NCBI GenBank assembly: GCA_002404095.1
Contig: DHJA01000103.1
Coordinates: 1-15,785 of the forward strand
Direction of reading: 5' to 3'
DNA length: 15,785 nucleotides
Source: Planctomycetaceae bacterium UBA4732
Lineage (GTDB): Bacteria > Planctomycetota > Planctomycetia > Gemmatales > Gemmataceae
Shown here: positions 815 to 14,909 of the stretch, piece by piece
How the letters are laid out: the number at the start of each line of letters is the position of its first letter
Position numbering within the stretch: the first letter of the stretch is position 1
Notes under the pieces: generated by a model
Database searches by the model: none
What the model was told of the DNA's origin: nothing
What the model saw: only the letters and a program-made list of their open reading frames with translations
Position numbers and translations under genes: made by a program

Positions 815-1231
815 TTAGCCAATCAGCCCTTCGGCCGCCAGCAGTCGCCGGTATTCGGCCATCGAGATGATTTGCAGCCCTTCGTACGGATGCAAGGCAA
901 GGAGATGACGGTCGTTAGTTACCAGATAGTCTACCCCGGCCGCGAGGGCGGCACGAAGGATCGGGCTGTCGTTCCTGTCCTGAGAGACGACATGACGCGA
1001 AGCGCCCGGTTCGACCAGCCTAGCCCGCCGCAACGTCCGCTGCCGAGACAAGACGGCCAAGCGCCGGGAGAAGCCGAGCCTCTCTGATATGACTCGTTCA
1101 AGCTCGTCAAGCAGATACGCGCTGACGAAAATGCGCCATCCCGCCCGTTCAGTGGCGGCGACCATTTCTTCCGCCGCTTCACCGAGAAGGCTCTCGGCCA
1201 CGTACACATTCGTGTCGAAAAAGACCTTCAT
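815..1231 (-). CDS. PIN-domain toxin (PIN_3-like), module 2
   Basis: A 138-residue PIN-domain protein beginning MKVFFDTNVYVAESL. It belongs to the PIN_3/COG1569-like branch of putative toxins. Candidate metal ligands are D6 (FFDTN), E43 (LLDELERV), D88 in the QDRNDSPIL segment and D107 (VTNDRHLL). The NDSPIL...GVDYLVTNDRHLL block is typical of this branch and distinguishes it from the VapC-like proteins on either side. The start codon overlaps the stop of the upstream small gene (ATGA, 1228-1231), a classic two-gene toxin-antitoxin arrangement. RNase activity is expected for the family but not demonstrated. Confidence 0.87.
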   Translation of the reverse strand: MKVFFDTNVYVAESLLGEAAEEMVAATERAGWRIFVSAYLLDELERVISERLGFSRRLAVLSRQRTLRRARLVEPGASRHVVSQDRNDSPILRAALAAGVDYLVTNDRHLLALHPYEGLQIISMAEYRRLLAAEGLIG

Positions 1232-1434
1232 TTGCTGTAACGGAAGTCGTGGATGGCTTGGTCAATCGCGGCTTGATCGACGCCTCTTTCCCGAGCCAAA
1301 CGGCGGGCCGGCTCGGCTTCACGCATCCACTCGGCCTCGGCCCGTTCGGCCAGGCGCTGGTCGAGCAGCAGGCGATCGGCTTCGGGGAGCTGCTCGATTT
1401 GATCCAGGATGGTTTGCACGTTGGACTGGTTCAT
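1228..1434 (-). CDS. Probable antitoxin of module 2
   Basis: A small 68-residue, highly charged and probably all-helical protein beginning MNQSNVQTILDQIEQL. It has no clear DNA-binding motif that I recognise. It is assigned as an antitoxin because of its size, composition and position directly upstream of the PIN_3-like toxin gene, overlapping it by four bases. The N-terminal LDQIEQLPEADRLLLDQRL segment resembles the helical start of many small antitoxins in GC-rich bacteria. Only a weak purine-rich ribosome-binding site precedes the ATG. The 183 bases between this gene and the next module hold no gene that I can support. Confidence 0.7.
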   Translation of the reverse strand: MNQSNVQTILDQIEQLPEADRLLLDQRLAERAEAEWMREAEPARRLARERGVDQAAIDQAIHDFRYSK

Positions 1435-1617
1435 GACGCGCTCTCGTCACTTCCGTGATGGCTAGTATGCCCACCCCTTGATTTGATTCTAGCTTGACCG
1501 AGACGAACGGCCAAGGCGGGGGAAGGCAAAAGGGGTCGGGAGATGCCATTTCTACGCAAGTGGAAACGACTCTACGCCACAACCCTCGGGTGCGGCGTCT
1601 GTTCCGGCCCAACCACT

Positions 1618-2067
1618 TCACACGCTCGCCGGATCAACGACCACGACGCCGGGGCCGAACCCCGCCAGCCGGGCGAAGTGCGCCACGTTGAACGTCAACA
1701 GGTGCGACATTCCGTGGACGTGGCAGACCGCCACGAGCCGGGCGTCATGAACTTGCTTGCCAACAATGCTCAGCGCTTCCACAAGAGCCTTCCATGCCGG
1801 GTAAATAGCCGGCGTCTCCGCCAGGAGTGGGAAGGTTGCCTGGAACACCGCCGCCTTCGCCTCCGCGCCCACAGCCGACAAGCCCAGGCCGTTCACCGCC
1901 GTCGGACGGGTGGCGACGTTCCTGAACTCAATGAGAACCTGTGGCGTGATATGCAGCAGTTCACCGCGTCGGTGCAGTTCAAATACGGCACGGGCCGCAA
2001 CCGTGTGCCGTGCGTCCAGCGTGTTCCCAAGTCGCACCAATAGATTCGTGTCGAGCAAGTAGGCCAT
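1618..2067 (-). CDS. PIN-domain (VapC-like) toxin, module 3
   Basis: A 149-residue PIN-domain protein starting MAYLLDTNLLVRL. Visible active-site positions are D6 (LLDTN), E47 (VLIEFRN) and D108 (VHDARLVA). The fourth position reads LLTFNVAHF, with Asn127 where many PIN proteins have Asp; this Asn is common in this branch and need not mean loss of function. The start codon shares one base with the stop of the antitoxin gene (TAATG, 2065-2069). A type II toxin RNase is the likely role. It is clearly diverged from the two other PIN toxins here, so the three modules are not recent duplicates. Confidence 0.88.
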   Translation of the reverse strand: MAYLLDTNLLVRLGNTLDARHTVAARAVFELHRRGELLHITPQVLIEFRNVATRPTAVNGLGLSAVGAEAKAAVFQATFPLLAETPAIYPAWKALVEALSIVGKQVHDARLVAVCHVHGMSHLLTFNVAHFARLAGFGPGVVVVDPASV

Positions 2068-2297
2068 TACTCGTACATTTCTTCACGACTGAGTGCCGCG
2101 TCAGATAGGGACACGCCGCAATCCGTCGCCGCTTCGAGCAACCGCCGCTCCCACTCGTCGCGTGGCTCCAACGGGGCGGACGCTGGGAGGAAATGCTCAC
2201 GCAAGGCGTCGAGGGCCAACACCTCCGGCGCCATGCCGCGCCGCCGGGCCTGTTCGCTCAGGACGGCTTCCAACTGTGGGGTAAGAGTGATGACCAT
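2067..2297 (-). CDS. Antitoxin of module 3
   Basis: A 76-residue protein starting MVITLTPQLEAVLSEQARRR. A short N-terminal strand followed by two helices is compatible with a ribbon-helix-helix DNA-binding antitoxin fold. The acidic C-terminal half (residues 40-76) would be the toxin-binding part. The ATG at 2297 is preceded by a good CAGGAG ribosome-binding site. The gene is immediately upstream of, and overlaps by one base, the PIN toxin. Family naming is uncertain, but the antitoxin role is well supported by position and size. Confidence 0.78.
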   Translation of the reverse strand: MVITLTPQLEAVLSEQARRRGMAPEVLALDALREHFLPASAPLEPRDEWERRLLEAATDCGVSLSDAALSREEMYE

Positions 2298-2338: not shown

Positions 2339-2410
2339 TCTCCCCAGACGATTGCCGGAATCGAAGGCTATACCTAGGCGCGCCCTTGCGCGTCAATCCG
2401 CCCCCACGGA

Positions 2411-2584
2411 CGGCCGCGGCGCGTTATAACTACACCGACGCCTCGAAGGCCGCACGGAGATTCTCATGCAGCTCGGCCCCTATCGTTTGCTGGCGCAGCT
2501 CGACGCGGGACGCGACGGCGCGTCGTACCGCGCCGCCGACGCAGCCGGCAATCCGGCCGAGGTGCGCGTCCTGAGCGGCGCCGT
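2411..2584 (+). repeat. Left copy of 174-bp direct repeat (kinase upstream region and 5' end)
   Basis: This segment aligns without gaps to 11321-11494 at a constant offset of 8910, with 164 of 174 positions identical and a perfect run at 2481-2537. It contains the TATAA-like sequence, the GGAG ribosome-binding site and the first 40 codons of the large kinase gene. Similarity stops abruptly after 2584. On the left it starts at the position matching the middle of the right arm of a palindrome in the other copy. The two copies bracket the whole glycan island. Confidence 0.97.
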
Positions 2585-2594
2585 TCGGGTTTAG
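2466..2594 (+). pseudogene. Truncated 5' fragment of the large kinase gene
   Basis: The reading frame starts MQLGPYRLLAQLDAGRDGAS as in the kinase at 11376. It keeps the first 40 codons with one amino acid change (Asp for Asn25), then adds Arg-Val and stops at TAG 2592-2594. This covers only the start of the N-terminal pseudokinase domain, so no functional kinase can result. The intact ribosome-binding site GGAG (2456-2459) means a 42-residue peptide could be translated if the upstream region is active. Of the three base differences in the shared codons after the start (counting changed codons), two are silent. It is best read as a relic of a duplication or integration event. Confidence 0.9.
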
Positions 2595-2656
2595 GGTGAG
2601 GAAGGCGCCGCCAACCACGGTACTGTCGGTGTGCCGCCGCCGGCCCGGCCGCAAGT

Positions 2657-2697
2657 AAAATCTACGATGCCTCCATTTCTCTCGGCAAAATCTACGA
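2657..2697. repeat. Short direct repeat pair in non-coding DNA
   Basis: AAAATCTACGA occurs at 2657-2667 and again at 2687-2697. The pair lies in the AT-richer stretch between the kinase fragment and the aminotransferase stop codon. No gene was found in 2595-2766. The pair may be chance or the relic of a repeat element. Confidence 0.45.
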
Positions 2698-2725
2698 CGT
2701 CCTTTTCTTTTCTGCCTTTGATTTT

Positions 2726-2750
2726 CTCTGTGGCGCTGTGCCTCTGTGGT
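2726..2750. repeat. CACAGAGG-type low-complexity repeat
   Basis: On the minus strand this stretch reads as degenerate iterations of (C)CACAGAGG/CACAG directly downstream of the aminotransferase gene. Similar CACAGAGGCACAG strings are, to my knowledge, dispersed in intergenic DNA of many bacteria including planctomycetes. No function is known to me. It marks the downstream edge of the glycan island. Confidence 0.5.
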
Positions 2751-2766
2751 TAGTCTTTTTTCTGCA

Positions 2767-3954
2767 CTAGGCAGCCCGACGGCTGCCGTCGAGTGTGAGG
2801 ATGTCGCGCGGGCCGCCGTGTCGCCTCGCCACCCGGAAACTGCGGACGGTTTCGATGACCGATTGCTGGTCCGCCGCCGTCAGGTCATTGTAGAACGGCA
2901 ACCTCAGCAGGCGGTCGCTGACGGCCTCGGTGACCGGGCAATCGCCCTCACGGCCGCCGAAGGTTTTCCCCATGACCGACAGGTGCAGCGGCAGGTAATG
3001 GAAGACGCTGCAGATGCCGCGCGCCCGCAGCAGAGCGATTAGCGCCTGCCGGTCCTCCAGAGAGGGCAACAGCAGGTAAAACAGATGGTAGGGCTGCTCG
3101 CAATGGGCCGGCGCCACTGGCAGCCTGACGCCCTGCGCGACGGCCCAGTCCTGTAATTGCTCGGCGTAGGTTTGCCAGATTTTTTTGCGGCGCGACTGGA
3201 TTTGGGTGCGCATTTCCAGTTGCGAATACAGCAGGGCGGCCAGCACGTCCGAAGGCAGAAAGCTGGAGCCGACGTCCACCCAGGTGTATTTATCGACTTG
3301 GCCGCGGAAGAACCGATTGCGGTTGGTCCCCTTCTCGCGCAGCACCTCGGCCCGCTCGATGAAGCGCGCGTCGTTGACCAGCAGGGCGCCCCCCTCGCCG
3401 CAGCTGAAGTTCTTGGTCTCGTGAAAGCTCTGCGTTGCCAGGGCGCCGAACGTCCCCAAGTAGCGACCGCGGTACTTGCCGAACAAGCCGTGCGCGTTGT
3501 CCTCGACGACCGCCAGGGAATGGCGGGCGGCGAAAGCGAGGATGGCGTCGAGTTCACAGCCGACGCCGGCGTAATGCACCGGCACGACGGCGCGCGTTCG
3601 CGGCGTCACCAGCGCCTCCAGCTGATTTTCGTCGAGGTTGAGCGTGTCCGGGCGGACATCGGCGAATACGGGTTTGGCCCCGCGCAGTACGAAGGCGTTG
3701 ACGGTGGAGACGAACGTAAACGAGGGGACGATCACTTCGTCGCCCGGCCGGACGTCCAGCAACAGGGCCGCCATCTCCAGGGCGTCGGTGCAGGAGGTGG
3801 TCAGAAGCACTTTCGGGACGCCGAGTTCCTCCTCGAGCAGGGCGTGGCATTTGCGGGTGAAGGGGCCGTCGCCGGACAGGTGCATATTGTCCACGGCCTG
3901 ACGGAGATAGTCGTAGGCCTTCTCGGCGATCAGCGGCCGGTTGAACGGGATCAC
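2767..3954 (-). CDS. wecE: WecE/RffA-type dTDP-4-amino-4,6-dideoxygalactose transaminase (DegT/DnrJ/EryC1 family)
   Basis: A 395-residue PLP-dependent sugar aminotransferase. It would convert a dTDP-4-keto-6-deoxyhexose to the 4-amino sugar with glutamate as donor. The N-terminal MIPFNRP, the SCTDALEMAALLLD block, the PLP lysine K181 in SFHETKN, D152 (VVEDNAH) and EKGTNRNRFFRGQVDKYTW closely match enterobacterial WecE. The frame is open upstream to 4149, but the GTG at 3954 is chosen: MIPFN homology starts there, a GAGG ribosome-binding site precedes it, and the upstream extension is repeat DNA. A tail of about 20 residues (from RVARRHGG) exceeds E. coli WecE. It is the last gene of the island, separated from the previous gene by a 274-bp repeat-rich gap, so it may be transcribed separately. 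No dTDP-glucose genes are in the window. Confidence 0.92.
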   Translation of the reverse strand: MIPFNRPLIAEKAYDYLRQAVDNMHLSGDGPFTRKCHALLEEELGVPKVLLTTSCTDALEMAALLLDVRPGDEVIVPSFTFVSTVNAFVLRGAKPVFADVRPDTLNLDENQLEALVTPRTRAVVPVHYAGVGCELDAILAFAARHSLAVVEDNAHGLFGKYRGRYLGTFGALATQSFHETKNFSCGEGGALLVNDARFIERAEVLREKGTNRNRFFRGQVDKYTWVDVGSSFLPSDVLAALLYSQLEMRTQIQSRRKKIWQTYAEQLQDWAVAQGVRLPVAPAHCEQPYHLFYLLLPSLEDRQALIALLRARGICSVFHYLPLHLSVMGKTFGGREGDCPVTEAVSDRLLRLPFYNDLTAADQQSVIETVRSFRVARRHGGPRDILTLDGSRRAA

Positions 3955-4003
3955 GCCATTGTCCTCTTTGCGAAAATCAGTCGAGGCCGCCGGATAGGTC
4001 CTA

Positions 4004-4219
4004 AAGTATCTACACCAACCCGTTGGGTTTTCCCTACGGACGGGGGTGCCATGCTTTCGCGGCTTATTTGTTTCACCTTCTTCCCGTCTGAGCCGCCGCG
4101 AAAGCATGGCACCCTCGCGAAGCGTCATGCTTTCGCGGGGTCCAGACAAGACGCCGCCTCTGAACCGAGCCGCGAAAGCATGGCACCCTCGACTGTAAAA
4201 GCTGCTGGTGTAGATACTT
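4004..4219. repeat. Composite inverted-repeat (MITE/REP-like) element
   Basis: A 14-bp perfect terminal inverted repeat (4004-4017 with 4206-4219) encloses four alternating copies of the core CATGCTTTCGCGG: forward near 4051-4062, reverse near 4098-4108, forward 4126-4138, reverse near 4170-4182. The first forward-reverse pair can fold into an about 20-bp stem (4044-4064 with 4095-4115) and the second pair into another. The element fills nearly the whole gap between the methyltransferase and aminotransferase genes and contains no plausible gene. The structure suggests a non-autonomous mobile or REP-like repeat. It could also terminate or stabilise the transcript. Confidence 0.85.
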
Positions 4220-4228
4220 CACGGTCGC

Positions 4229-5068
4229 TCAGGCCGCTTGCCGGCCGGACGCCGGCGCAACGTCGTCTCGGCAGGCCAGCGCGATAATGGAGGCGCCAAA
4301 CGGCAAAGGACGCCGCCGGGCCAGCAGCCGCGCTTCCCAGCCCAGCAGCCACGACATAATGCGGTTGAACCCCGGCACGATGCGGAGTTCGCTGAGAGCC
4401 AAGGACTTCGCGTCCGGGACAGGTCCGCCGCGCAGGCGCCGCAACATGGACGCCGCCCGCCGGTTCAGCCACATGAACGGGACCAGCGCCATCATGAACT
4501 CGCTGGCGAACTCCACGCGATAACCGCTCTCGGTCAGCGCTTGCCGCAACTGCGCGACCGAGTAACGGCGGTAATGATTCGCAAACTCGTCGGTGTGGCT
4601 CCACAACGCCATATGCGCCGGAACCGTCAGAAGTAGTCGCCCTGTCGGCGCCAGCACACGTCGGACGTCCTGAAGCGCCCGGCGGTCGTCCGGCAGGTGT
4701 TCCAGCACGTCGAACATGCCGACGACTTCAAAGGGAGCGTCGAACTTCATAGCGTGGATGTCGACCTGAATGAGGGGGCAGGAAGTCCGCTGTCGTGCGA
4801 ACTGCAAGCCTTGCTCGAAGAGGTCGAGTCCGATGGTTTCGCCGCGAGCGCAGACTTTTTCGAGGGCGCGGAGGACGTTGCCGGTGCCGCAGCCGACTTC
4901 CAGCACACGATAGCCCGGCGCCATCTTGTCGGTCAGGCCGCGCACCACTCTCGCGATGACGTCATTGCGAGAGCGGAACCAGAAATGACGATCCTCCGCG
5001 GCAAACAGGTGATCGAAGTCGGGCGCCTCGTCGCCTGGCGGCTTCACAATAGTCGCCGATTTTGACAT
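4229..5068 (-). CDS. Class I SAM-dependent methyltransferase
   Basis: A 279-residue methyltransferase. The SAM-binding motif I is VLEVGCGTGNVL (55-66), the acidic post-I residue is D82 (IGLDLF), and FDVLEHLPDD (119-128) follows. The segment LWSHTDEFANHYRRYS (155-170) is typical of methyltransferases found in surface-polysaccharide clusters. The C-terminal part (about 180-260) has hydrophobic stretches with basic residues that could associate with membrane. The start ATG at 5068 has a GAGGA site and lies 12 bases after the beta-propeller gene's stop, so the two are co-transcribed. The substrate is probably a sugar hydroxyl or a lipid-linked glycan, but it cannot be named. Confidence 0.87.
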   Translation of the reverse strand: MSKSATIVKPPGDEAPDFDHLFAAEDRHFWFRSRNDVIARVVRGLTDKMAPGYRVLEVGCGTGNVLRALEKVCARGETIGLDLFEQGLQFARQRTSCPLIQVDIHAMKFDAPFEVVGMFDVLEHLPDDRRALQDVRRVLAPTGRLLLTVPAHMALWSHTDEFANHYRRYSVAQLRQALTESGYRVEFASEFMMALVPFMWLNRRAASMLRRLRGGPVPDAKSLALSELRIVPGFNRIMSWLLGWEARLLARRRPLPFGASIIALACRDDVAPASGRQAA

Positions 5069-5080
5069 GGGACGTTCCTC

Positions 5081-5980
5081 TTACTCCTCGATGGCGATAC
5101 CGAATCCCGTCAAGCCGTAACGGTTGCCGTTGTAAAGCAGGTAACGCTGCCCCCCGTGCGTGAAGACGTAGGGGTAAGCCTGCATCTCCGAGTCCCAGCC
5201 GGAAGGGGAGACGTCGATCCCCACTTCATCGGGACGCCTGTGCCAGTGGATGCCGTCTGCCGATTCGGCGTAGCCGAGGCGATAAGCCGCGCCGCGGTGA
5301 CAGTACCACATGCGATACACGCCGCCGTCCTTAACGACGCACGGCCGGCATACCGCGTATTCTTCGGGCGGTTGCAGGTCAAGGGCAATCACGCCCTGTC
5401 GCTCCCAGTGAATCCCGTCCGCCGACTCGGCGTACTTGATCACGTGATCCATGTCCGTCTCTTGCCGGCCCCAGCGGAGGTTGGATCCGTACCACATCCT
5501 CCAGCGGGCGCCCTCGCGCAGCACGCAGGGATAGGAGAGGGTGTAGGGGTCCGCGGCGCAACGGTCGAGGAGCGGCGCCGGCGAGTGCTTGACGAACGGC
5601 TCGCCCGGCCGCGCCCGCACCGCCAGGCCGATACTGTTTCGCCAAGGCACCGTGACGCCCAGGTTCCAGCCGAGATAATAGAGATAAGTGGCCTCCCCGG
5701 CATGGATGAGCCAGCCCATTGAGGCGCCGCTGTCGTCGAAACCGCCGAGAGGACCGGGCGCGACCACCGGCTCGTCGGCAACGCCCAGCACGCGCACCTG
5801 CGGACGCAATTCGACGTCCACGTATCCGATGTGCGTGCGGTTCAGCCGGTCGCGGCAGCCGAAGTAGACGCGGAACTCGTCGCCGGCGAGATGCTCGGCT
5901 ACCGGATTGGCGGCGTGCGAGACCATCCACTCGCGCTGACCGTTGGCGGCAAAGACGAGACCCAGTTTACGCCACGTCAC
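5081..5980 (-). CDS. GH43/GH32-like five-bladed beta-propeller protein
   Basis: A 299-residue protein of the five-bladed beta-propeller glycosidase superfamily. Repeated blade motifs are visible: WRMWYGS (160-166) followed by YAESADGIHWERQ (183-195), and YRMWYCHRG (222-230) followed by YAESADGIHWHRR (237-249). The N-terminal FRVYFGCRDRLNR (36-48) matches first-blade sequences of sugar-cluster relatives. There is no signal peptide, so the protein is probably cytoplasmic. A substrate-binding or transfer role, rather than secreted hydrolysis, is possible. The start is GTG 5980 with a perfect AGGAGG (5987-5992). It follows directly after a large palindrome and is tightly coupled to the next methyltransferase gene. 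Catalytic residues cannot be assigned with confidence. Confidence 0.8.
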   Translation of the reverse strand: MTWRKLGLVFAANGQREWMVSHAANPVAEHLAGDEFRVYFGCRDRLNRTHIGYVDVELRPQVRVLGVADEPVVAPGPLGGFDDSGASMGWLIHAGEATYLYYLGWNLGVTVPWRNSIGLAVRARPGEPFVKHSPAPLLDRCAADPYTLSYPCVLREGARWRMWYGSNLRWGRQETDMDHVIKYAESADGIHWERQGVIALDLQPPEEYAVCRPCVVKDGGVYRMWYCHRGAAYRLGYAESADGIHWHRRPDEVGIDVSPSGWDSEMQAYPYVFTHGGQRYLLYNGNRYGLTGFGIAIEE

Positions 5981-5997
5981 GTCGGTCCTCCTGGTAG

Positions 5998-6118
5998 CGT
6001 CTCAATTGGGCGAGCCGGGGGCGTTAGCCCCCGGAGGGTAGTATCAGCGACTGAGACTATCTCCGGGGGCTTACGCCATCTCCGGGGGCTTACGCCCCCG
6101 GCTCGCCCAATTGAGACG
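5998..6118. repeat. 38-bp inverted repeat with nested palindromes
   Basis: The arms 5998-6035 and 6081-6118 are complementary at 37 of 38 positions. Each arm contains its own smaller hairpin (CCGGGGGC, four bases, GCCCCCGG). The loop carries a further copy: the 19-bp unit ATCTCCGGGGGCTTACGCC is tandemly repeated at 6059-6077 and 6078-6096. The structure starts two bases after the acyltransferase stop codon and ends five bases before the AGGAGG of the beta-propeller gene. It therefore exactly fills the intercistronic gap. It is probably a dispersed repeat of the genome that also shapes the mRNA; no T-run follows, so it is not a standard terminator. Confidence 0.93.
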
Positions 6119-6120
6119 TC

Positions 6121-6813
6121 TCACAACCCCTTGAGACGGTTACTTGGTACCCGCGACACCTCGGCCGCCGTCCCCTTGCAGACGGCCATGGGCGGCAAAT
6201 CCTGCAGCACCAACGCGCCGGCGCCAATCACGCTCTCCGCGCCGATTTTCACGCCGTCGCGCAGCGTCGCGTTGACGCCGATGAAGCAGTATGGACCGAC
6301 CTGCACGTTGCCCGAGATGACCGTGTGCGACGTGATGAAGCAGTGGTCGCCGATGGTCGCGTCGTGGCCGACGTGGTTGCCGCTCCACAGAATCACGTCG
6401 TTGCCGAGGCGAACGAACGGCTGCAGGACGTTGTTCTCGAAGACGAAGCAGTTGTCGCCGTAAGTGATCTCGCCCCAGTGGACGGCCTTGGAATTGATGT
6501 AGCTGATGAGTTCGTAACCCTTCGCCTTGCAGGCGTCGTAGATCTCGGCCCGGGCCTTATTGATGCGGCTGAAGCCGATGGCGACGAACATGGCGTAACG
6601 GTCGGGCGGGTAGAGTTCTTCCAGGCGCTCGAACGGCGCCACTGGCTTGCCAAGCAAGTCGGGCTGCTTGAGGAAAGCCTCGTGGACCGTGAAAGCGACC
6701 ACGTCATACGGACTGTCCTTGGCCAGGTATACGCTGGCGACGCGGGCGAAATCGCCCGTGCCAAAGAGGACCACTTTTTTCCCTGTGATGGGTTGCGCCT
6801 TGTCTTGTGTCAT
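6121..6813 (-). CDS. NeuD/PglD-like sugar N/O-acyltransferase (left-handed beta-helix)
   Basis: A 230-residue acyltransferase of the NeuD/PglD/PerB-like family. Residues 12-90 form the N-terminal Rossmann-like sugar-nucleotide domain, with [11 protein letters not shown] (14-24). From about residue 105 to the end there are left-handed beta-helix hexapeptide repeats (for example VRLGNDV, ATIGDH, VQVGPY, VKIGAES). H150 in [13 protein letters not shown] matches the catalytic His of PglD. It would acylate an amino sugar, plausibly the product of the WecE-like enzyme. The open frame extends upstream to 7086, but ATG 6813 is chosen: it overlaps the dioxygenase gene's stop as ATGA (6810-6813) and family homology begins there. 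Confidence 0.88.
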
Positions 6814-7634
6814 CCCTGTCCCTGGCGATAAAGCCGGTCGTGTTCGGGGCGATAGTATTCGTCGAGGCTCGTCACGACGCGCGTGTACCAGCCCAGCAGT
6901 TGCTGGGTCCGCGCCGGTTGGGCTAGGACCGTCGTCTCGCCTAGAGCGCGGACGTAATCGATTTGCTGCTTCAGGAACGAGCGCGTGAACTGATGGTTGA
7001 TGCCGAGCCGATCGGCGCCGGAAACATTGACGCCGGCGGCGTGCCACAAGGTCGAATCGAAAACGAGCATCGAGCCGGCCGTGCATTCGACGGGGACGGC
7101 CGCCGCTTCGAGGTACTCGCGCGCCGGCGTCGCCGTCTTCTGGTGCGTGCCGGGGACGATCAGGGTGCCGCCGTTCTCCGCGGTGAAAGCGTCGATGGCA
7201 AAGAACAGGTTGATCGACGCGAGGTAGCCGTTGAAGACGCGCGGAAAATCCATGTGGAAGCGGTTCTGAAAGACGGTCGGCGTCTGCGTCTTCGGAAACG
7301 ACGGCAGGATGAAGCCGTTTTGCAGGTGCATGATCGCCGTCTCGCCGACCGTCCGATCTACGACCGCGAGCAACTCCGGCAATTCGAGAAACTTGAAGAA
7401 GTGGTTGTCGTGCTTGAGCATCAAGCGCAACACGCCGAGTTCGCCGGCGCGCCGCAAGCGCTGGTCGCCTAACTCGCGGCGGTTGGCGGCCTGCACCTGA
7501 TCCAAGCGCGTGCGCGTTGTTTCGATCATGTCAAGCGGCAGTACATTGCGGACGATGGCGACGCCCGTGTGGTGCAACGACTCCAGGACTAGCGCGAGCC
7601 AGTTCACGTCTTTCTTGCAATCGACCGAGATCAT
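6810..7634 (-). CDS. Phytanoyl-CoA dioxygenase (PhyH)-like Fe(II)/2-oxoglutarate oxygenase
   Basis: A 274-residue non-haem iron oxygenase. The iron triad is visible: H127 and D129 in FHMDFPRV and H198 in LWHAAGVN. R209 (ADRLGIN) or R218 (FTRSF) could bind 2-oxoglutarate. The core beta-helix region spans roughly residues 95-220. The start at 7634 is preferred over the in-frame start at 7688 because homology begins there and AAGGA lies just upstream. It overlaps the acyltransferase by four bases, so the two are translationally coupled. The substrate is probably a sugar, acyl or lipid intermediate of the glycan; hydroxylation is the likeliest chemistry but is inferred. Confidence 0.86.
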
Positions 7635-7698
7635 GCGTCCTTGCCTTTCTAGCCGTCGCTTTACACCACAACGCCACCACGCGCACAAGCACTTCGAG

Positions 7699-8871
7699 CT
7701 AATTCAGCACTGGATGCACGCCTACCCCAAGACCTCGGAGGCGACTCGTCAGCTGGGGATAATAAACTTTGTTCACCGCCAGGACAATGTCGTTGACGCC
7801 ATGAGCAGCGCACGCTTCCGGCTTCACGACCGGGAATCCCAGTTTGGCGAGGTCCGGCTGGTCTGGGCGATCATCCAGGCCGCAGACTATGGGAAAGCCG
7901 CCGAGGTCCGAATACGCGCGCGCCAAGGCGAATACTTCGTTCAGGCCGAAGACGGCGACGCGCCGTTGCGCCGTGGCGAGCCGGTCCAGCGTTTGGTTGA
8001 GCCGATTCATGTCGGTGGTCACCTGGGAGACGATCTGGGCGCACGCCGTCTCCGCGCGAGAACCGGACCACGCCGCGTCTGCCGCGCCTTCGGTGGCTTG
8101 CCAAAGGTGCAGACTGAAGTTGGGCATCCATTCGTGACCGACGACGAAGCCCAACTCGCGGAAACCGCACTTGCGCGCATAGTAGCGCAAGTGGTCCGTG
8201 CCGAAGTGATGCAAATGATCGACGAAGAAAACGTCATAGCTCGGCACATCCTGCGTCGGTTGACACAAAAACAGCAAACCGCCCGGACGCAGACATCGCC
8301 GCAACTCTTGAAGAAAGCGCGTCGGCGAAGGCACGTGTTCCAGGACGGCGACCGAATAGATGGCGTCATAGCGATCGTCCGCCGTTTGCAGTAGCGGCCC
8401 CTGGCGAACGCGCAAGCCGCGCCGCCGCGCTTGATGCGCCGAGGCGGCGCACAGCTCGATGCCTTCCAAAGCGCAATCCGGGAATCGCTGCTGAAACTCG
8501 GCCAGCAGGGCGCCGGCGCCGGCGCCGACTTCGAGGCAGCGCCCGAGCGTCCGCCAACGGTCCTGCCCGAACGCCGTCGTCAGCCAGTTGCAAAAGAGCG
8601 TGCTGCGCGCCACGGGACCGCCGGGCGTGTAGAAGGTATAATCGTCCGGCGCCACGCGGTAATCCTGCGTGTAACAGTCGATCAGCGCATCAGACTGGCG
8701 TGAATGTCCCTCGCGCACTAGGCCGCAGCGCTGGCAGCACAGCTTGCATAGATCGCCTGCCATCATCTGCCGATCCGAGCGCAGCGATCGACCCGTCGCC
8801 AGGTGAGCCAGCACGTCGGCTTGCTGCGACCGGCACAGATCGCAGCGGTCCGCACGGTAGTTGCCGTCCAT
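7699..8871 (-). CDS. Zinc-binding SAM methyltransferase with C-terminal Rossmann-like domain (sugar C-methyltransferase-like)
   Basis: A 390-residue three-part protein. C10-x2-C13 and C46-x2-C49 form an N-terminal zinc-binding domain. A class I methyltransferase core follows with motif [13 protein letters not shown] (112-123), acidic E139 (GIEL) and [11 protein letters not shown] (173-183). A C-terminal Rossmann-like domain (about 303-390) carries [14 protein letters not shown]. This order is that of sugar C-methyltransferases such as TylC3 and NovU, and of related enzymes in glycan clusters. VDHLHHF (217-223) occupies the position of the usual catalytic Tyr/His segment. It lies nine bases downstream of the next methyltransferase gene and 64 bases upstream of the oxygenase. 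C- versus O-methylation cannot be decided. Confidence 0.86.
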
Positions 8872-8880
8872 ACGCCGTCC

Positions 8881-9504
8881 TCAGCGCCGCACCAGGATGG
8901 TGAACTCGTAAAGTCCGTAATCGTGCAATAGCGCCACGTGCCGCGAGAAGCGCCGCTTGCAATGATCGAACAGCGTACACGGATTCGCATAATACAGATC
9001 GGCCCGCATGCGCTCCGGATCGGAGTAGCTGGTCAGGGCGTTGAAGGCGAACCCGCGTCGGCCGAGGTCGGCGAGGCGTTCGATCGTGTGCAAGACGTAG
9101 GCTTCCCACTCGGCGAGCGACCGCTCCAGCTTCACGTTGAACACGCCGCTGGCGACGACGAAATCGCTGTCGGCCAGGACCGACTCGTCGGCGCCGAAGG
9201 CGGCCCGAGCGTCGCCGCCGTGCCGCCCCCGTGCCGCCTCGAGCATCGCCTCGGAGATGTCGAAGCCGCGGTAGGCGCAGTCGCGGCCGCCGGCCAGAAG
9301 GTGGTCGTACAGCGCCGCATAACCGCAGCCGTAGTCGCCGAGCGTGAACGGCCCGGCCTCGTCACAAACGCGAATGAGCTGAGCGAAGCGCGTCTCTTGC
9401 GAGACGGCTGAGTTCCAATCGACGCCGCGCGGCGTCGAACCGTGCGCGCCGATGCGGCCGGTGTAGTACGCGCGGACGTCAGTCAACAAGTCGGAGGCGT
9501 TCAT
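8881..9504 (-). CDS. Small class I SAM-dependent methyltransferase
   Basis: A 207-residue methyltransferase. Motif I is LGDYGCGYAALYDHL (55-69), the ribose-binding acidic residue is D82 (GFDISEAML), and VASGVFNVK follows motif II. The N-terminal segment GAHGSTPRGVDWNSAVSQ (19-36) is shared by a group of methyltransferases in O-antigen and capsule clusters. There is no zinc domain and no membrane segment. The start ATG at 9504 has GGAGGAG upstream and lies 26 bases inside the end of the glycosyltransferase gene, so the genes are coupled. The acceptor is unknown. Confidence 0.86.
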   Translation of the reverse strand: MNASDLLTDVRAYYTGRIGAHGSTPRGVDWNSAVSQETRFAQLIRVCDEAGPFTLGDYGCGYAALYDHLLAGGRDCAYRGFDISEAMLEAARGRHGGDARAAFGADESVLADSDFVVASGVFNVKLERSLAEWEAYVLHTIERLADLGRRGFAFNALTSYSDPERMRADLYYANPCTLFDHCKRRFSRHVALLHDYGLYEFTILVRR

Positions 9505-10438
9505 GCCGTGCCGCTCCTCCCGGCCGTTCGTAGACCTGGCGAACGAGCGTCACCGGACGGCGCTTCGTCTCCAGGTAAACCTTCGCCAGGTAAATCCCTT
9601 GGATCCCCTGGCAGAAGATGATAAGCCCGCCCAGCAGCCAGATCGAGACCATCAGCGACGGCCAGCCGGCCATCATACCTTTGCCGAGCAACTGGCCCGT
9701 GACCAGCCCGGCCCCGATCAACGCCGAGACCGTAAACAGGACCACGCCCAAGTAGAAGATGAAGATCAACGGCTTGCTGCTGAAGGAGGTAATGGCCTCG
9801 ACGAACAGCTTCGCCCGGCGGAATAGGCTATAGGTCGTGGCCTTCTTGCCCGCTTTCGCCACCCGTACCGGCTGCTGCTGGAACCCTGTGCGCGCCCACA
9901 GCCCGGCGATGACGAACGACCGTTCTTCGTGCATCAAGAGCGCATCGACGTAGCGCCGGCTCATGAGGCGAACGGTCATCAGGTGCTGCGGGAGCGGATC
10001 ATCGCAGAGGGCGTTGAAGAGCTTGTAAAACAGCCACGCTCCCCAGCGCTGGCTCCAGCGGTCGCCGCGCGCTTCCTGGACGCCGTACACAACGTCGGAG
10101 CCACTCGTCTCTTGTTCACGCGCGAAGAGCGCGAGCCATTCCGGCGACTCTTCCAGGTCGCAGTCGATGAGGAAAACCCAGTCGCCCCGCGCATGTTCCA
10201 GGCCGGCCCACATCGCCTGGTGATGGCCGAAGTTCCGGGAAAGATCGACGACTTTGACCCGAGCGTCCTCCGCCTGGAGGCCAAGCGCCGCGGCGAGGGA
10301 GCCGTCGGGCGAGCCGTCGTTGACGAGGACGATCTCATAGTCCTCGGTCACCTGGCGCGCGGCGGCGCGGACGCGCGCGTGGAACTCGCGCAGGTACGCC
10401 TCGGAGCGATACATTGTCGAAACAATGCTAAGCCGCAT
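9479..10438 (-). CDS. GT2-family membrane glycosyltransferase (ArnC/DPM1-like)
   Basis: A 319-residue inverting glycosyltransferase with a GT-A fold. Nucleotide-sugar binding is indicated by D41 in VNDGSPDGS (39-47) and by the DCD motif (92-94) in FLIDCDLEESPEW. Two transmembrane helices are visible at about 224-246 and 258-282, as in ArnC, GtrB and other polyprenyl-phosphate sugar transferases. It probably transfers a sugar to undecaprenyl phosphate at the inner face of the cytoplasmic membrane. It overlaps the WbqC-family gene by 11 bases upstream and the small methyltransferase gene by 26 bases downstream. GGAGG precedes the ATG at 10438. Confidence 0.9.
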   Translation of the reverse strand: MRLSIVSTMYRSEAYLREFHARVRAAARQVTEDYEIVLVNDGSPDGSLAAALGLQAEDARVKVVDLSRNFGHHQAMWAGLEHARGDWVFLIDCDLEESPEWLALFAREQETSGSDVVYGVQEARGDRWSQRWGAWLFYKLFNALCDDPLPQHLMTVRLMSRRYVDALLMHEERSFVIAGLWARTGFQQQPVRVAKAGKKATTYSLFRRAKLFVEAITSFSSKPLIFIFYLGVVLFTVSALIGAGLVTGQLLGKGMMAGWPSLMVSIWLLGGLIIFCQGIQGIYLAKVYLETKRRPVTLVRQVYERPGGAARHERLRLVD

Positions 10439-11135
10439 CGCGCCTCCGTTCGAGGTACGCGGAGGCCTGCGGCCCCACCATGAACAGGAGGTCGAGCACC
10501 GTTACGGCGTGTTCAAACGGCGGATGCAGTTGGGGGTATTCCGCGTAACCGGAGTAGTCCATGTAGCGGACGGCGACGCCGTGGCCCGCGAACAGCCCCT
10601 CGTCGAGATAACTCCGCGCGGCCGGCCCGGACAGGTAGACGCTTGCGCTCGCTTGCAGACAAAGCTCCAGCAGCTTGGCGGTCGGGTCCGTCTCGGTCAG
10701 GCGATAATCCATTGAGCGAGTGATTCGCGTGGTGATTCCCATGATTTCGCAGACGCCAGTGATCCACGCGTGGTTGACGTCGCTGAGGAACTCGTCATTG
10801 CGACCGAGGTATAGCGACTCGAACGCATCCTTGAAGTGCCGAAAGAACGGCGCCTTGCCGTAGCAATGGCTCAGTGTGCGCCAGTGGTCGCGTCCCCAGT
10901 TCGGGTCGCTGACCTTCGTCTCTTTGACCGCCTGGAAATACTTGCCCTTAACCTCGACGGGGATGGTGAGCCACTGCGTCCCGTGAGCCGTCTTGATGCG
11001 GTTGCGGTTGCGCCAGTCGCGGCGGGTGTACTGGACGTCGTCGTAGAGGACGAATTCGTCCGCGCAGCGGATGAGGTCGAAGTAGCCTTTCCAGGGGATG
11101 TAATTGGACTGGACGATCGCCAGAACCTTCCCCAT
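10428..11135 (-). CDS. WbqC-family protein
   Basis: A 235-residue member of the WbqC-like family (PF08889), known from O-antigen and other glycan clusters but without an established general reaction. The family signature is plain: AIVQSNYIPWKGYFDLI (6-22), YDDVQYTRRDWRNRNRI (31-47) and WLTIPV (55-60). Full length, soluble, no signal peptide. As the first gene of the minus-strand island it probably follows the main promoter in the 11136-11375 region; GGGGAG precedes the ATG at 11135. A role in adding an amino-acid or acyl group to an amino sugar has been suggested for relatives; that is inference here. Confidence 0.9.
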   Translation of the reverse strand: MGKVLAIVQSNYIPWKGYFDLIRCADEFVLYDDVQYTRRDWRNRNRIKTAHGTQWLTIPVEVKGKYFQAVKETKVSDPNWGRDHWRTLSHCYGKAPFFRHFKDAFESLYLGRNDEFLSDVNHAWITGVCEIMGITTRITRSMDYRLTETDPTAKLLELCLQASASVYLSGPAARSYLDEGLFAGHGVAVRYMDYSGYAEYPQLHPPFEHAVTVLDLLFMVGPQASAYLERRRDAA

Positions 11136-11264
11136 GAAACACGTCTCCCCGAGGGCCGAGAACCTGCATTGTCGTGGAGAGGCCTATCCCTGAGAGGTGA
11201 AGGCGTCGTATACCCCTTTCCCCATCGGGAAACAAGGCGGGTTCGCGGGAAAGGAAGCGGTGTT

Positions 11265-11334
11265 ACGAGCCGCGACCGTTAGGGAGCCGTCACGTCGCCC
11301 AACTCAAAACCACTCCCTAACGGTCGCGGCTCGT
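11265..11334. repeat. Perfect 22-bp inverted repeat between divergent genes
   Basis: 11265-11286 and 11313-11334 are exact reverse complements, with a 26-base loop. The right arm ends directly before the TATAAA-like sequence (11335-11340) of the kinase gene. The inner boundary of the 174-bp direct repeat falls inside this arm at 11321. The motif GAGCCGCGACCGTTAGGGAG resembles, from memory, a palindromic repeat dispersed in planctomycete genomes. It could act as a terminator or insulator between the divergent units or be only a repeat insertion. The rest of 11136-11264 shows no gene. Confidence 0.92.
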
Positions 11335-11494
11335 TATAAATACAACGACGCCTCGAAGGTCGCACGGAGACTCTCATGCAGCTCGGCCCTTATCGTTTGC
11401 TGGCGCAGCTCGACGCGGGACGCGACGGCGCGTCGTACCGCGCCGCCAATGCGGCCGGCAATCCGGCCGAGGTGCGCGTCCTGAGCGGCGCCGT
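11321..11494 (+). repeat. Right copy of 174-bp direct repeat
   Basis: This is the partner of 2411-2584. It covers the tail of the palindrome, a TATAAA-like -10 sequence (11335-11340) without a clear -35, the ribosome-binding site GGAG (11366-11369, six bases before the ATG) and the first 40 codons of the kinase gene. This copy is continuous with the full-length gene. Confidence 0.97.
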
Positions 11495-14400
11495 CGCGGA
11501 TGCCGAGCGATGGAAAGCGCTGAGTAAACGCCTACGTTTGGCGACGACTTTTGACCATCCCGCGTCGGTTCGCATCCAGTCGCTAGAGTTGGATCACGAC
11601 CCGCCGTTTGTGGCGTTGGATTGGGTGGAAGGTACAAGCTTGGCCGAGTCTTTCGCGCAGGCCATGCCGCCTCCCGAGGAGGGCTTGCGGATCGCCGAGG
11701 GACTGTGCGACGTAGTGGCGGACGCGCATCGCCTGGGTCTCGTTCACGGTCGGCTGCGTCCTATTTCGATCCGCTTGACGGACGCGGGCGGACTAAAACT
11801 GGACTTCACCGGCGTCGAAGCCGGCGCCCTTAGCGACCCGGCGGCACACGCGGAAATGTCCGCCGCGTGCGTCGCGCCCGAGGTGGAGGCCGGCGGCAAG
11901 GCTGACGCCGCGGCCGACCTCTATAGCTTGGGAATGATTCTGTATTGGCTGTTGCGCGGCGGCACTACGCTTCCCGGCCACACGCCGCGCGAGATCGCCG
12001 GCAATATCCAACAGGAAACCCGCACGTTTCGCGTGTCGTGGCAGCATCTCGTACCGCTGCTGCTGGCGGCCGACCCGGCGGAACGACCGCAGGCTCGGAT
12101 GGTTCTGGATCGGCTTCAAAAAGACGGTTCGGACGTGGAAGACGCGCCCGACGCCCAAACCGTGCTGGGTCAGACGGTCCACCGCGAATCGTCCGCGAAG
12201 GCGCCCCCAACTCAAGTGGGGCGGTTTCGCCTCATGGAGAAGCTCGGCGAGGGCGGCATGGGTTCGGTCTACCGGGCCGAGGACACGACCGACGGTACGA
12301 TTGCGGCCGTGAAATTGCTACAGGGGCGGTGGAATGATCTGGAGGGGGCGTGGCAACGGCTGCGTAAGGAAGCCAGGATGCTGGCCGAGGTCAACAACCC
12401 CTACGTTGCTAACTTCATCGAAATCAACGAACACGAAGGCGCGCCTTATTTAGTCATGGAGTTTGTGGAGGGTGAAAGTCTTAGTAAGACGCTTGCTCGG
12501 CGGAAACGACTGCCGGAGGTCGAGGCCGTGGCCGTGATGGCCGACGTGGCCCGCGCCCTCGTTGAGGCGCACCGTCGCGGCATCGTCCATCGCGACGTGA
12601 AGCCGGAAAATATCCTTTTGCAAATGGGGAGCCTTCGGGTGAAGTTGTGCGATTTCGGCTTGGCCCGTCACGTTCTGCAATCCGAGTCGCTGAACCTGAC
12701 CCAAGCCGGAACTGCCGTGGGCACTCCTTTCTACGCTTCGCCGGAGCAGTGCGCGGGCGCACGCATCGACGCCCGTACCGACGTCTACGCCATGGGGGCC
12801 ACGCTGTATCATCTGCTGGCCGGGCGGCCGCCGTTTGTGGCGGAAACCGCCTTGGGTCTGAGCTTTTTACACGCCAATAAACCGCCGCCGCCCTTGCGAG
12901 AGTTCAACCCCGACGTGAGCGACGGCGTCTGTCGGATCGTCGAGAAGGCGCTGGCCAAACACCCCGACGACCGTCAAGCCGACGCCGAGGCGTTCCTGCT
13001 TGAACTCGAACGGCTGCGCCGCGGCGAGGCCGTCAGCCTTGTCGTCCACCCCCGACTTCCCCCTGCCGCGCCGGGTAAAGTGTTGCATTACGAATGGACC
13101 TGGGAACTGGAGGCGGCGCCGGACCAGATGTGGCCGCACGTCGCCAACACCGAACGGCTCAACCGCGCCATCGGGCTGCCTGCCGTGGACTTCACGACCG
13201 AGCCGGATCCGTCCGGCGGCACGCGCCGTTTTGGTGAGGCGCGGAAGGCTGGCGTCGTCAATAGCTGGCGGGAACATCCCTTCGAGTGGGTCGAAGGCCG
13301 GCGCCTGGGCGTGTTGCGCGAATACCATCGCGGCGTCTTCAAGTGGATGGCCAGCACGGTGGAATTGAAGCCGCGCGGCGACGGCGGCACGTCGCTGACG
13401 CATCGGCTCCGCATCGAACCGCGCGGCCTGCTAGGCCGGTTGATCGCGGCAGTGGAAGTCGGCATTAAGGGGAAGCGCGCCCTGGAGCGCGTCTACCGCC
13501 GCATCGACGGCTACGCCGGGGGCAAGCTAGGCAGACCGGAAACGAGCGATCCGTTCGAGCCGGCGCCGCCGATGAAGCCGGCCGGGCGACGACGGCTCGA
13601 AGGCTTGCTCAACCGGCTTATCGAATTGCGCTTGGACCCCGGCGTTGTCGAGAAACTAGGCGATTTTCTGTCGCACGCGCCGCCGCAGGAGGTCGCGCGC
13701 ATCCGGCCGTTGGCGATGGCGGAGCGACTCGGCCTTGATGCAAACCAGCTTACGGCGGCCTGTCTGCACGGCGCTCGTGAGGGCTTGTTGGTTCTCCTTT
13801 GGGACATTCTCTGCCCCATTTGTCGCATTCCATCCGGCGTCAAGGACGCGCTGCAGGCGGTGAGCGAACACGAACACTGTCCGGCCTGCGACCTCGACTT
13901 CAAGCCGGACTTCGGCGAAGCGGTCGAGATGATTTTTCGCGTTCACCCGGAGGTCCGTGCCAGCGAGCTGGCCACGTATTGCGTCGGCGGGCCGGCCCAT
14001 TCGCCCCACGTCGCGGCCCAGGTCCGGGTCGCCCCGGACGAGACCATCGAGTTGGAATTAGCGCTCTCCGAAGGGGCATATCGGCTACGCGGCCCCCAGC
14101 TGCCTTACGCGCGGGACTTTCAGGTTCGGACGACCGCCGCGGCGCGACGCTGGGATTTGACGCTGGGACAAGGTGAGCCGCCGAGGACGCCGGCCGCTCT
14201 CCAAGCCGGCCGGCAGATTGTAACCCTGACCAATGAACATCCGGTGGAGGTGGTGGTGCGCATCGAACGCACGGCCTCGCGCGCCGACGCCCTGACGGCC
14301 GTGCGCGCTTCCACGTTATCCCTGTTCCGCGAGCTGTTCCCAGGCGAGGCGCTGTCGCCCGGCCGACTTGCGGGCGTGACCTCCTTGACGCTGTTGGTGA

Positions 14401-14909
14401 CGGACCTGGACCCGGCCGGCCGGCTGTACGAGAAATTAGGCGACGCCCGCGCCTTCGACGTGCTGCATGGCTATTTGCAAGCGGTCGGCGAGAGCGTGAA
14501 ACGCGAAGGCGGCGCCGTGGTCAAGGCGGTAGGGGAAGGGATGCTGGCATCTTTCATTGACCCGGCGGCGGCTGTGCGCGTCGGTTTGACGTTGGCCGGC
14601 CGCGCCGTATCCGGAGCGGAAAACGGCTTGCGCCCACGCGTAGCCGTCCATCGCGGGCCCGTAATGGTCGCCACCATCAACGACCACCTCGACTATTTCG
14701 GTTCCACGGTCAGCCAGGCGTCGCGCTTGACACAGCGCGCGGCGGGCGGTGAGTTGGTACTGACGCAGACGGTTGCGTCCGACCCCGAAGTGGCGGACGT
14801 GCTGCGCTCGCGGGGTCTGCTCATCGAAGTGCTGCCCGAAGAAGCGTCCTCCTCGATGGCGGGATTCCTGCATCGCATCACGGTTCCCGCCCGTTTCCCC
14901 GTGGAGTAA
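11376..14909 (+). CDS. Multidomain signalling protein: pseudokinase, Ser/Thr kinase, SRPBCC, DUF5939-like, class III cyclase
   Basis: An 1177-residue, apparently cytosolic protein with no membrane helix. Residues 5-245 are a kinase-like domain lacking key residues: R34 replaces the VAIK Lys, HGR (124-126) replaces HRD, and DFT (143-145) replaces DFG. Residues 281-548 are a complete Hanks-type kinase: GEGGMG 291-296, K313, HRD 405-407, DFG 426-428, SPE 455-457. Residues 568-715 resemble an SRPBCC/START ligand-binding domain. Residues 740-985 resemble the DUF5939 region, with Cys pairs C813/C816 and C835/C838. Residues 1000-1170 are a class III cyclase: D1010, K1050 and D1106 (LDYFGS) are kept, but GDG reads GEG (E1054) and the usual Asn reads Ser1113 beside R1117. 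It probably couples phosphorylation to cyclic-nucleotide signalling. It is divergent from the glycan island, and its start is fixed by GGAG and the duplicated copy. Confidence 0.93.
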   Translation: MQLGPYRLLAQLDAGRDGASYRAANAAGNPAEVRVLSGAVADAERWKALSKRLRLATTFDHPASVRIQSLELDHDPPFVALDWVEGTSLAESFAQAMPPPEEGLRIAEGLCDVVADAHRLGLVHGRLRPISIRLTDAGGLKLDFTGVEAGALSDPAAHAEMSAACVAPEVEAGGKADAAADLYSLGMILYWLLRGGTTLPGHTPREIAGNIQQETRTFRVSWQHLVPLLLAADPAERPQARMVLDRLQKDGSDVEDAPDAQTVLGQTVHRESSAKAPPTQVGRFRLMEKLGEGGMGSVYRAEDTTDGTIAAVKLLQGRWNDLEGAWQRLRKEARMLAEVNNPYVANFIEINEHEGAPYLVMEFVEGESLSKTLARRKRLPEVEAVAVMADVARALVEAHRRGIVHRDVKPENILLQMGSLRVKLCDFGLARHVLQSESLNLTQAGTAVGTPFYASPEQCAGARIDARTDVYAMGATLYHLLAGRPPFVAETALGLSFLHANKPPPPLREFNPDVSDGVCRIVEKALAKHPDDRQADAEAFLLELERLRRGEAVSLVVHPRLPPAAPGKVLHYEWTWELEAAPDQMWPHVANTERLNRAIGLPAVDFTTEPDPSGGTRRFGEARKAGVVNSWREHPFEWVEGRRLGVLREYHRGVFKWMASTVELKPRGDGGTSLTHRLRIEPRGLLGRLIAAVEVGIKGKRALERVYRRIDGYAGGKLGRPETSDPFEPAPPMKPAGRRRLEGLLNRLIELRLDPGVVEKLGDFLSHAPPQEVARIRPLAMAERLGLDANQLTAACLHGAREGLLVLLWDILCPICRIPSGVKDALQAVSEHEHCPACDLDFKPDFGEAVEMIFRVHPEVRASELATYCVGGPAHSPHVAAQVRVAPDETIELELALSEGAYRLRGPQLPYARDFQVRTTAAARRWDLTLGQGEPPRTPAALQAGRQIVTLTNEHPVEVVVRIERTASRADALTAVRASTLSLFRELFPGEALSPGRLAGVTSLTLLVTDLDPAGRLYEKLGDARAFDVLHGYLQAVGESVKREGGAVVKAVGEGMLASFIDPAAAVRVGLTLAGRAVSGAENGLRPRVAVHRGPVMVATINDHLDYFGSTVSQASRLTQRAAGGELVLTQTVASDPEVADVLRSRGLLIEVLPEEASSSMAGFLHRITVPARFPVE

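What the first reader, a model, noticed from the sequence alone, without database searches (positions are those of the whole stretch)
2411..11494. Glycan island bracketed by a 174-bp direct repeat of the kinase 5' end
Positions 2411-2584 and 11321-11494 match at 164 of 174 positions without gaps (offset 8910), and everything between them is the nine-gene glycan island with its repeats. The left copy is truncated after codon 40; the right copy continues as the full kinase. This is the pattern expected from single-crossover (Campbell-type) integration of a circular DNA carrying a kinase 5' segment, or from a tandem duplication. Recombination between the copies would excise an 8910-bp circle and restore an intact kinase frame. 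The island could therefore be gained or lost cleanly.
Basis: partly seen in the sequence, partly recalled or inferred. Interest (0 to 1): 0.72.

Follow-up and report, generated by a model that had tools for sequence, protein, structure and literature searches.

The report
Kinase gene stub beside sugar-gene cluster
A planctomycete genome carries a broken copy of the start of a signalling-kinase gene on the far side of a cluster of sugar-modifying genes; it is most likely a scar of local DNA duplication rather than a proven doorway through which the cluster comes and goes.

Summary
The direct repeat is real: 2411-2584 and 11321-11494 match at 164/174, are the only two copies found in the draft genome, and the stub's 42-aa ORF is recorded identically on 5 contigs, the longest 20,197 bp, so a one-contig artefact is unlikely. 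Nine glycan-type genes lie between. Cluster and kinase are each patchy in the family and were not found on one contig in relatives, so their adjacency looks lineage-specific. The Campbell reading is weak: the right copy sits behind an intact REP-type palindrome of a genome-wide family (148 arms; backwards-pattern control 0), whereas the stub keeps only one decayed arm (16/22) and begins at the loop/arm border. The stub is cut at both ends, opposite to the simple Campbell expectation. Local direct repeats of at least 100 bp occur in 4 of 80 own-genome stretches at >=90% identity and 6 of 80 at >=85%, but none of the 80 matches this one in strength and spacing together. Best reading: a segmental-duplication scar, probably break repair at a palindrome, perhaps tied to the cluster's arrival. 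Excision is possible in principle, not shown. No close empty site could be read.

The parts
2403..2424 (+). decayed single arm of the REP-type palindrome at the left edge of the stub (16 of 22; 12 of 14 inside the 174-bp repeat)
2411..2584 (+). left copy of the repeat (kinase 5' stub)
2466..2594 (+). 42-aa open frame of the stub (kinase codons 1-39, Val40, then RV and stop)
2767..4149 (-). DegT/DnrJ/EryC1 aminotransferase (2767-4026 was scanned)
   Evidence: PF01041
4229..5068 (-). SAM methyltransferase (MT1)
   Evidence: PF13489
5081..5980 (-). GH130-like protein (below Pfam cut-off)
   Evidence: PF04041, 23.2 bits against cut-off 26
6121..6813 (-). hexapeptide-repeat transferase with PglD-like N terminus
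   Evidence: PF00132
6810..7634 (-). PhyH-type dioxygenase
   Evidence: PF05721
7699..8871 (-). SAM methyltransferase (MT2)
   Evidence: PF13489; relative in 1 other of 102 order genomes
8881..9504 (-). methyltransferase, weak (MT3)
   Evidence: PF08242 and PF13649 below cut-off
9479..10438 (-). GT2 glycosyltransferase
   Evidence: PF00535
10428..11135 (-). WbqC-like protein
   Evidence: PF08889; widespread family
11265..11334 (.). intact REP-type palindrome: perfect 22-nt arms 11265-11286 and 11313-11334, 26-nt loop
11321..11494 (+). right copy of the repeat
11376..14909 (+). full protein kinase with DUF5939 and a nucleotide-cyclase-like C-terminal domain
   Evidence: PF00069, PF19363, PF00211

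Best explanation
The left copy is a dead, doubly truncated duplicate of the kinase 5' region (palindrome arm, leader, first 39 codons), made by a segmental duplication. The likeliest route is illegitimate break repair or template switching that began at the REP-type palindrome just upstream of the kinase, during or after the rearrangement that placed the glycan cluster between the toxin-antitoxin block and the kinase. Shown: the repeat, its truncation at both ends, the intact palindrome at one copy only, the lack of such adjacency in the relatives examined, and other local fragment repeats in this genome. Inferred: break repair as the route, and the link to the cluster's arrival. RecA recombination between the copies could delete the cluster, but nothing shows that it does.
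For: The homology starts at the loop/arm border of a palindrome whose arm has 72+76 matches in this genome at up to 2 mismatches against 0+0 for the pattern read backwards. A 22-mer matching the arm at 16 or more of 22 occurs at 54 of 778,712 one-strand positions of the first 40 own-genome stretches plus the window, 36 of them at 19 or more, so the stub's 16/22 arm exactly in register is unlikely to be chance. No homology joins the flanks beyond the repeat. Direct repeats of >=100 bp with starts >=900 bp apart lie in 4 of 80 own-genome stretches at >=90% and 6 of 80 at >=85%; in one, L115, an orphan copy of the last ~50 codons of a 674-aa ORF brackets a 244-aa ORF. Residue 25 is Asp in the stub and in P0002-P0012, Leu in P0013 and Asn only in the full kinase of the window, so the stub is not a fresh copy of today's gene.
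Against: None of the 80 stretches has a pair with >=90% identity, >=164 identical bases and starts >=5 kb apart as here, so the window's pair is unusual and a link to an insertion of the cluster is natural. The first 40 stretches alone had no pair at >=90%. REP units can move, so completeness of the palindrome is an imperfect guide to the parental copy. The other fragment pairs are not shown to share a mechanism, and no palindrome core lies near the L115 pair.
Confidence: 0.47

Rival explanations
1. The stub is the relic of a former second copy of the whole kinase gene, whose body was lost when the cluster or the toxin-antitoxin block moved in.
For: The stub keeps the Asp25 of the relatives; 3 of 4 coding differences are at codon position 3 and the leader is more diverged than the coding part (6/55 against 4/119, p = 0.07), as if it once coded. 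P0002, a 50-aa ORF 85% identical to the stub on an 11,073-bp contig, suggests that such kinases also break elsewhere.
Against: No trace of the rest of a second kinase in 2585-2770 (only a 15-bp match at E 0.09) or elsewhere in the draft, where the next kinase is about 40% identical over the kinase domain. The substitution pattern rests on four changes. P0002 may be a frameshift or contig-edge effect.
Confidence: 0.25
2. Campbell-type single-crossover integration of a circle carrying the kinase 5' segment and the glycan genes; the copies are the integration boundaries and recombination would excise the island.
For: Direct orientation, exact bracketing of the cluster, 57-bp perfect block; cluster patchy in relatives and not beside the kinase; no equally strong and widely spaced pair in 80 other stretches.
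Against: The palindrome spans the predicted new junction at the right copy and is lost at the left, the reverse of expectation; no integrase or transposase among 17 proteins scanned and no tRNA; no plasmid match to the window at megablast level and no phage match to the repeat region; no other contig with the segment; GC of cluster genes and flanking genes is alike (0.615-0.663 against 0.602-0.659).
Confidence: 0.19
3. Assembly error: a chimeric join at the palindrome or a scaffolding overlap created the second copy.
For: The draft is heavily scaffolded: 81 N runs in the first 40 sampled stretches plus the window, 36 with an inverted and 17 with a direct 12-mer shared across the gap (2 with both); rpoB is interrupted by N runs.
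Against: No N in the window; the copies differ at 10 positions; the identical 42-aa stub ORF is on 5 contigs, one longer than the window.
Confidence: 0.06

Closest known systems
REP / BIME repetitive extragenic palindromes (PMC3733652, passages seen, mentions members in Planctomycetes)
   Same: short stem-loop, many dispersed copies mostly as paired opposite units, extragenic at this site
   Different: arm not compared with the GTAG or CGTC families of that paper; no RAYT transposase was searched for
REP-associated segmental duplications (Shyamala 1990, seen only as a reference-list entry; SBW25 duplications in PMC11708052 and PMC7661048, passages seen)
   Same: one end of the duplication lies at a REP-type palindrome
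   Different: those are large tandem duplications (45-290 kb in PMC7661048); here a fragment of about 180 bp lies 8.9 kb away
Campbell-type genomic island with a gene-fragment boundary repeat (recalled)
   Same: truncated gene copy on one side, full gene on the other, cargo between
   Different: no integrase seen, palindrome context on the wrong copy, no empty site seen
Variable surface-glycan gene clusters (general kind, recalled)
   Same: DegT, GT2, WbqC, hexapeptide transferase and methyltransferases; patchy, and reordered between genera
   Different: product unknown; no conserved flanking genes identified

Membership tests
Campbell-type integrated island | direct repeat bracketing the cargo | tested here: met
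Campbell-type integrated island | native upstream context on the left copy, new junction at the right copy | tested here: not met
   intact palindrome spans the right-copy boundary, only a decayed arm at the left; later movement of the palindrome cannot be ruled out
Campbell-type integrated island | empty site in a close relative | tested here: inconclusive
   10 of 10 kinase-bearing family relatives show no cluster gene beside the kinase, two of them on contigs under 5.3 kb, but they are 42-57% relatives without the window's flanks; the closest kinases (83-92%) have no readable context
Campbell-type integrated island | excised circle or deletion junction | tested here: inconclusive
   none among assembled contigs; reads not available
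REP-type repetitive palindrome | stem-loop in many dispersed copies | tested here: met
REP-type repetitive palindrome | associated RAYT transposase or GTAG/CGTC tag | not tested
   not searched
REP-mediated tandem duplication | a duplication end lies in a REP | tested here: met
   left end at the loop/arm border, 2403/11313
REP-mediated tandem duplication | other end also in a REP, copies in tandem | tested here: not met
   right end is inside codon 40 and the copies are 8.9 kb apart
Transposon target-site duplication | short exact repeat flanking a transposase-bearing element | tested here: not met
   174 bp at 94%, no transposase among the Pfam hits of 17 window proteins

The most novel reading that the evidence does not exclude
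This genome may repeatedly copy short gene ends, anchored at its REP-type palindromes, to the far side of neighbouring genes, creating a population of RecA-excisable cassettes of which the nine-gene glycan cluster is one; loss of a surface glycan would then be a frequent event that leaves the neighbouring kinase whole.
Probability: 0.07. Interest if true: 0.6.

Novelty: new member of a known kind. Interest (0 to 1): 0.22.

Why it matters
If the copies do recombine, one event would delete nine glycan-type genes while leaving the kinase intact, a clean route to surface change in a phylum whose cell surfaces are of wide interest. More generally, the survey shows that local fragment repeats are present elsewhere in this genome, a caution against reading every bracketing repeat as an island boundary.

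Tried and rejected
Target-site duplication of a transposon: rejected (174 bp, 94%, no transposase among 17 proteins). Dispersed repeat family: rejected for the 174-bp segment (2 copies in the draft). Homology resuming upstream of the palindrome or after the stub: none found (one 15-bp match at E 0.09). Foreign composition of the cluster: GC not distinctive; GC3 of the nine cluster genes is 0.754-0.855 against 0.703-0.776 in the eight flanking genes, slightly higher and not pursued. Recent transfer between held relatives: cluster proteins are mostly 53-69% identical to those of G023 and G109, MT1 only 27-32% in G023, while rpoB of G000 and G109 is 73.8% identical over 892 residues (no rpoB was found in the G023 draft); no sign of recent exchange with G109.

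Contig-length fingerprint: none of the 120 listed WbqC relatives (7,170 reached the E-value among 7,998 scored) has the contig length given for kinases P0003-P0008 (4,930; 52,294; 11,766; 127,770; 212,847; 385,749 bp). That fits absence of the cluster there but is only a proxy. The best WbqC hit, P0088 (97%), is on a 1,742-bp contig. A viral-contig scan for a 42-bp piece of the repeat found nothing. The search for planctomycete island papers gave a listing only and nothing used.

Error of mine: the 'left' query was translated one base out of frame, so its 'left' rows are meaningless. The 'right' rows cover the same 40 residues and show no second stub beside the kinases of relatives; one search uses the correct frame. 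In some searches two query frames (the partner of the first PIN gene, and DegT) began at in-frame points rather than start codons.

Survey caveats: thresholds were set after seeing the window's repeat. The stretches were not random: the first 40 came from contigs already named by kinase or repeat hits, of the second 40 thirty were taken by contig number and ten from long contigs. They are 2,523-20,000 bp long; 14 of 80 are under 9 kb and could not show an 8.9-kb spacing. The first 40 gave 0 pairs at >=90% and 2 stretches at >=85%; the second 40 gave 4 and 4.
Full report
WHAT WAS CLAIMED AND WHAT IS THERE. Positions 2411-2584 and 11321-11494 match at 164 of 174 positions at offset 8910. The self-comparison extends this to 175 bp at 94.3%, E 3.8e-74, and shows no other repeat of that size in the window. 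The left copy holds codons 1-39 and Val40 of the kinase and then runs into a stop (42-aa ORF, 2466-2594); the right copy opens the 1177-aa kinase. Between them lie nine minus-strand genes of glycan type, two of them recognised only below the Pfam cut-off.

CONTEXT. The window is one whole contig (C259) of a 299-contig, 6.8-Mb draft genome, the only genome of its genus that the search held. Kinase relatives are mostly from Planctomycetota, with Gemmataceae and Isosphaeraceae among them; one full-length relative is labelled Myxococcaceae, and partial ones come from Chloroflexota and others. The last 41 bases of the contig (15745-15785) are a dispersed repeat, which probably explains why the contig stops there.

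IS IT AN ARTEFACT? The assembly is scaffolded with many N runs (81 in the first 40 sampled stretches plus the window; rpoB interrupted), but the window has none. The exact 42-aa stub protein is recorded on 5 contigs, the longest 20,197 bp, longer than this window. The copies differ at 10 positions. An artefact is unlikely. Whether the 5 contigs are independent assemblies, whether the window's own is among them, and whether they hold the glycan genes is not known.

THE PALINDROME. Immediately before the right copy is a hairpin of two perfect 22-nt arms, 11265-11286 and 11313-11334, with a 26-nt loop (single-strand DNA fold -29.2 kcal/mol, z -7.2, 0 of 200 shuffles as good). The arm occurs 72 times forward and 76 times reverse at up to 2 mismatches in the genome; the pattern read backwards gives 0 and 0. 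In the first 40 sampled stretches plus the window, 74 arms (up to 4 mismatches) form 30 hairpins and 14 lone arms, several of the latter next to N runs. The last 14 nt of the right arm lie inside the 174-bp repeat. The stub keeps this arm in decayed form (16 of 22; 12 of 14 inside the repeat) and shows neither loop nor left arm; its upstream region does not fold unusually (z -1.1, 32 of 200 shuffles as good). A match of 16 or more of 22 is found at 54 of 778,712 one-strand positions of that sample, 36 of them at 19 or more. The duplicated unit may thus be better given as 2403-2584, starting at the loop/arm border. The stub is broken on both sides and the copy with the fuller context is the right one. 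A Campbell event predicts the reverse: native upstream on the left, a new joint just before the right copy. REP units can move, so this argument is good but not conclusive.

AGE AND DIRECTION. The only amino-acid difference is residue 25: Asp in the stub and in 11 of 12 compared relatives (P0002-P0012; Leu in P0013), Asn in the window's full kinase. The full gene changed there after the duplication. Differences are denser in the leader (6/55) than in the coding part (4/119), p = 0.07, too few to argue from.

RELATIVES. Kinase orthologs at E <= 1e-150 occur in 11 of 95 family genomes including this one. Stretches around all 10 others were fetched (two on contigs under 5.3 kb): none shows a glycan-cluster or toxin-antitoxin homolog of the window at E <= 1e-4. 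Over all loci tested the only hits were MT1 matches in 4 loci (31-35%) and one GH130-like match (31%), none in these ten. The MT2 protein has a relative at E <= 1e-30 in 2 of 102 order genomes including this one, the GH130-like protein at E <= 1e-20 in 5 of 95 family genomes including this one. On contig C296 of G023 all nine cluster proteins have a match, MT1 only weakly (27-32%); on C1130 of G109 seven have a match, without PhyH, and the MT2 match there falls on the MT1 gene; the gene order differs in both. G023's kinase lies on another contig (C95). The cluster is a unit of its own, and its place beside this kinase is probably particular to this lineage. The closest kinases in the protein database are 92, 88, 85 and 83% identical over their length (P0003-P0006), but their contigs cannot be read here. 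No listed WbqC relative shares their contig lengths, a weak hint that the cluster is absent there.

HOW UNUSUAL IS IT HERE? I surveyed 80 stretches of the same genome (1,304,612 bp; 2.5-20 kb, mean 16.3 kb). Direct repeats of at least 100 bp with starts at least 900 bp apart occur in 4 of 80 stretches at >= 90% identity (L158, L162, L169, L171) and in 6 of 80 at >= 85% (adding L095 and L115). Against my reading: only 2 of 80 (L169, a whole duplicated gene, and L171) reach 164 identical bases at >= 90%; only 1 of 80 (L162, 106 bp) has starts >= 5 kb apart at >= 90%; none has both, as the window's pair does; and the first 40 stretches had none at >= 90%. The pairs are also of mixed kind: one pair in L169 ends at an N run, and L095's 106-bp unit has 20 hits in the first sample. 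L115 is the nearest parallel: an orphan copy of the last ~50 codons of a 674-aa ORF, 975 bp away, with a 244-aa ORF between. In L162 segments at gene starts and upstream regions recur at 90-97% at four places. So gene-fragment repeats are part of this genome, but the window's pair is among its stronger and wider ones.

MECHANISM. Most likely a segmental duplication in which repair or replication restarted at the palindrome and copied about 180 bp to a second site, during or after the rearrangement that put the cluster beside the kinase (inferred). REP clusters as hot spots of rearrangement are described in passages of PMC11708052, and duplication ends at intergenic repeats in a table of PMC7661048 (passages); the 1990 REP join-point paper was seen only as a reference entry. 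Rivals are a relic of a second kinase gene (0.25), a true Campbell insertion (0.19) and an assembly error (0.06). The repeat's 57-bp perfect block could in principle support RecA-dependent loss of the cluster (inferred); there is no evidence that it happens, and no other assembled contig carries the segment.

VERDICT. A genuine but modest finding: a duplication scar next to a variable glycan cluster. The island-boundary claim remains open, not shown.

Noticed in passing
window 11265-11334; genome-wide: A REP-type palindrome family (arm ACGAGCCGCGACCGTTAGGGAG and variants) with 148 arms at up to 2 mismatches in this genome; its exact 15-nt core was not found in 40 loci of relatives searched (L023-L048, L057-L066, L084-L087).
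   Followed up: partly
L115:16934-18068: Orphan copy of the last ~50 codons of a 674-aa ORF, 88% identical and 975 bp away, bracketing a 244-aa ORF: a 3'-end parallel to the window's 5'-end stub.
   Followed up: partly
L162:13021-18262: A 106-156 bp segment at gene starts and upstream regions recurs at 90-97% identity at four places among different genes.
   Followed up: no
family genomes: Of 94 relatives, 10 have the kinase (E <= 1e-150) and 4 the GH130-like cluster gene (E <= 1e-20); 3 have both, on separate contigs. The overlap looks higher than chance but kinship is not corrected for.
   Followed up: no
window 5998-6118 and 4035-4197: Two further inverted-repeat elements inside the cluster (39-nt arms, 97% complementary; 30-nt arms, 90%).
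   Followed up: no
G000:C273:1464-5290: rpoB of this draft genome is interrupted by N runs, one with a direct repeat shared across the gap, a sign of imperfect scaffolding.
   Followed up: partly
window 92-2297: Three PIN-domain genes, each with a small partner gene upstream that has no Pfam hit, form a tandem toxin-antitoxin-like block next to the stub.
   Followed up: no
P0002 (50 aa, 11,073-bp contig): A second short kinase-5' ORF in another organism, 85% identical to the stub and following the kinase about eight codons further; perhaps a frameshifted kinase.
   Followed up: partly
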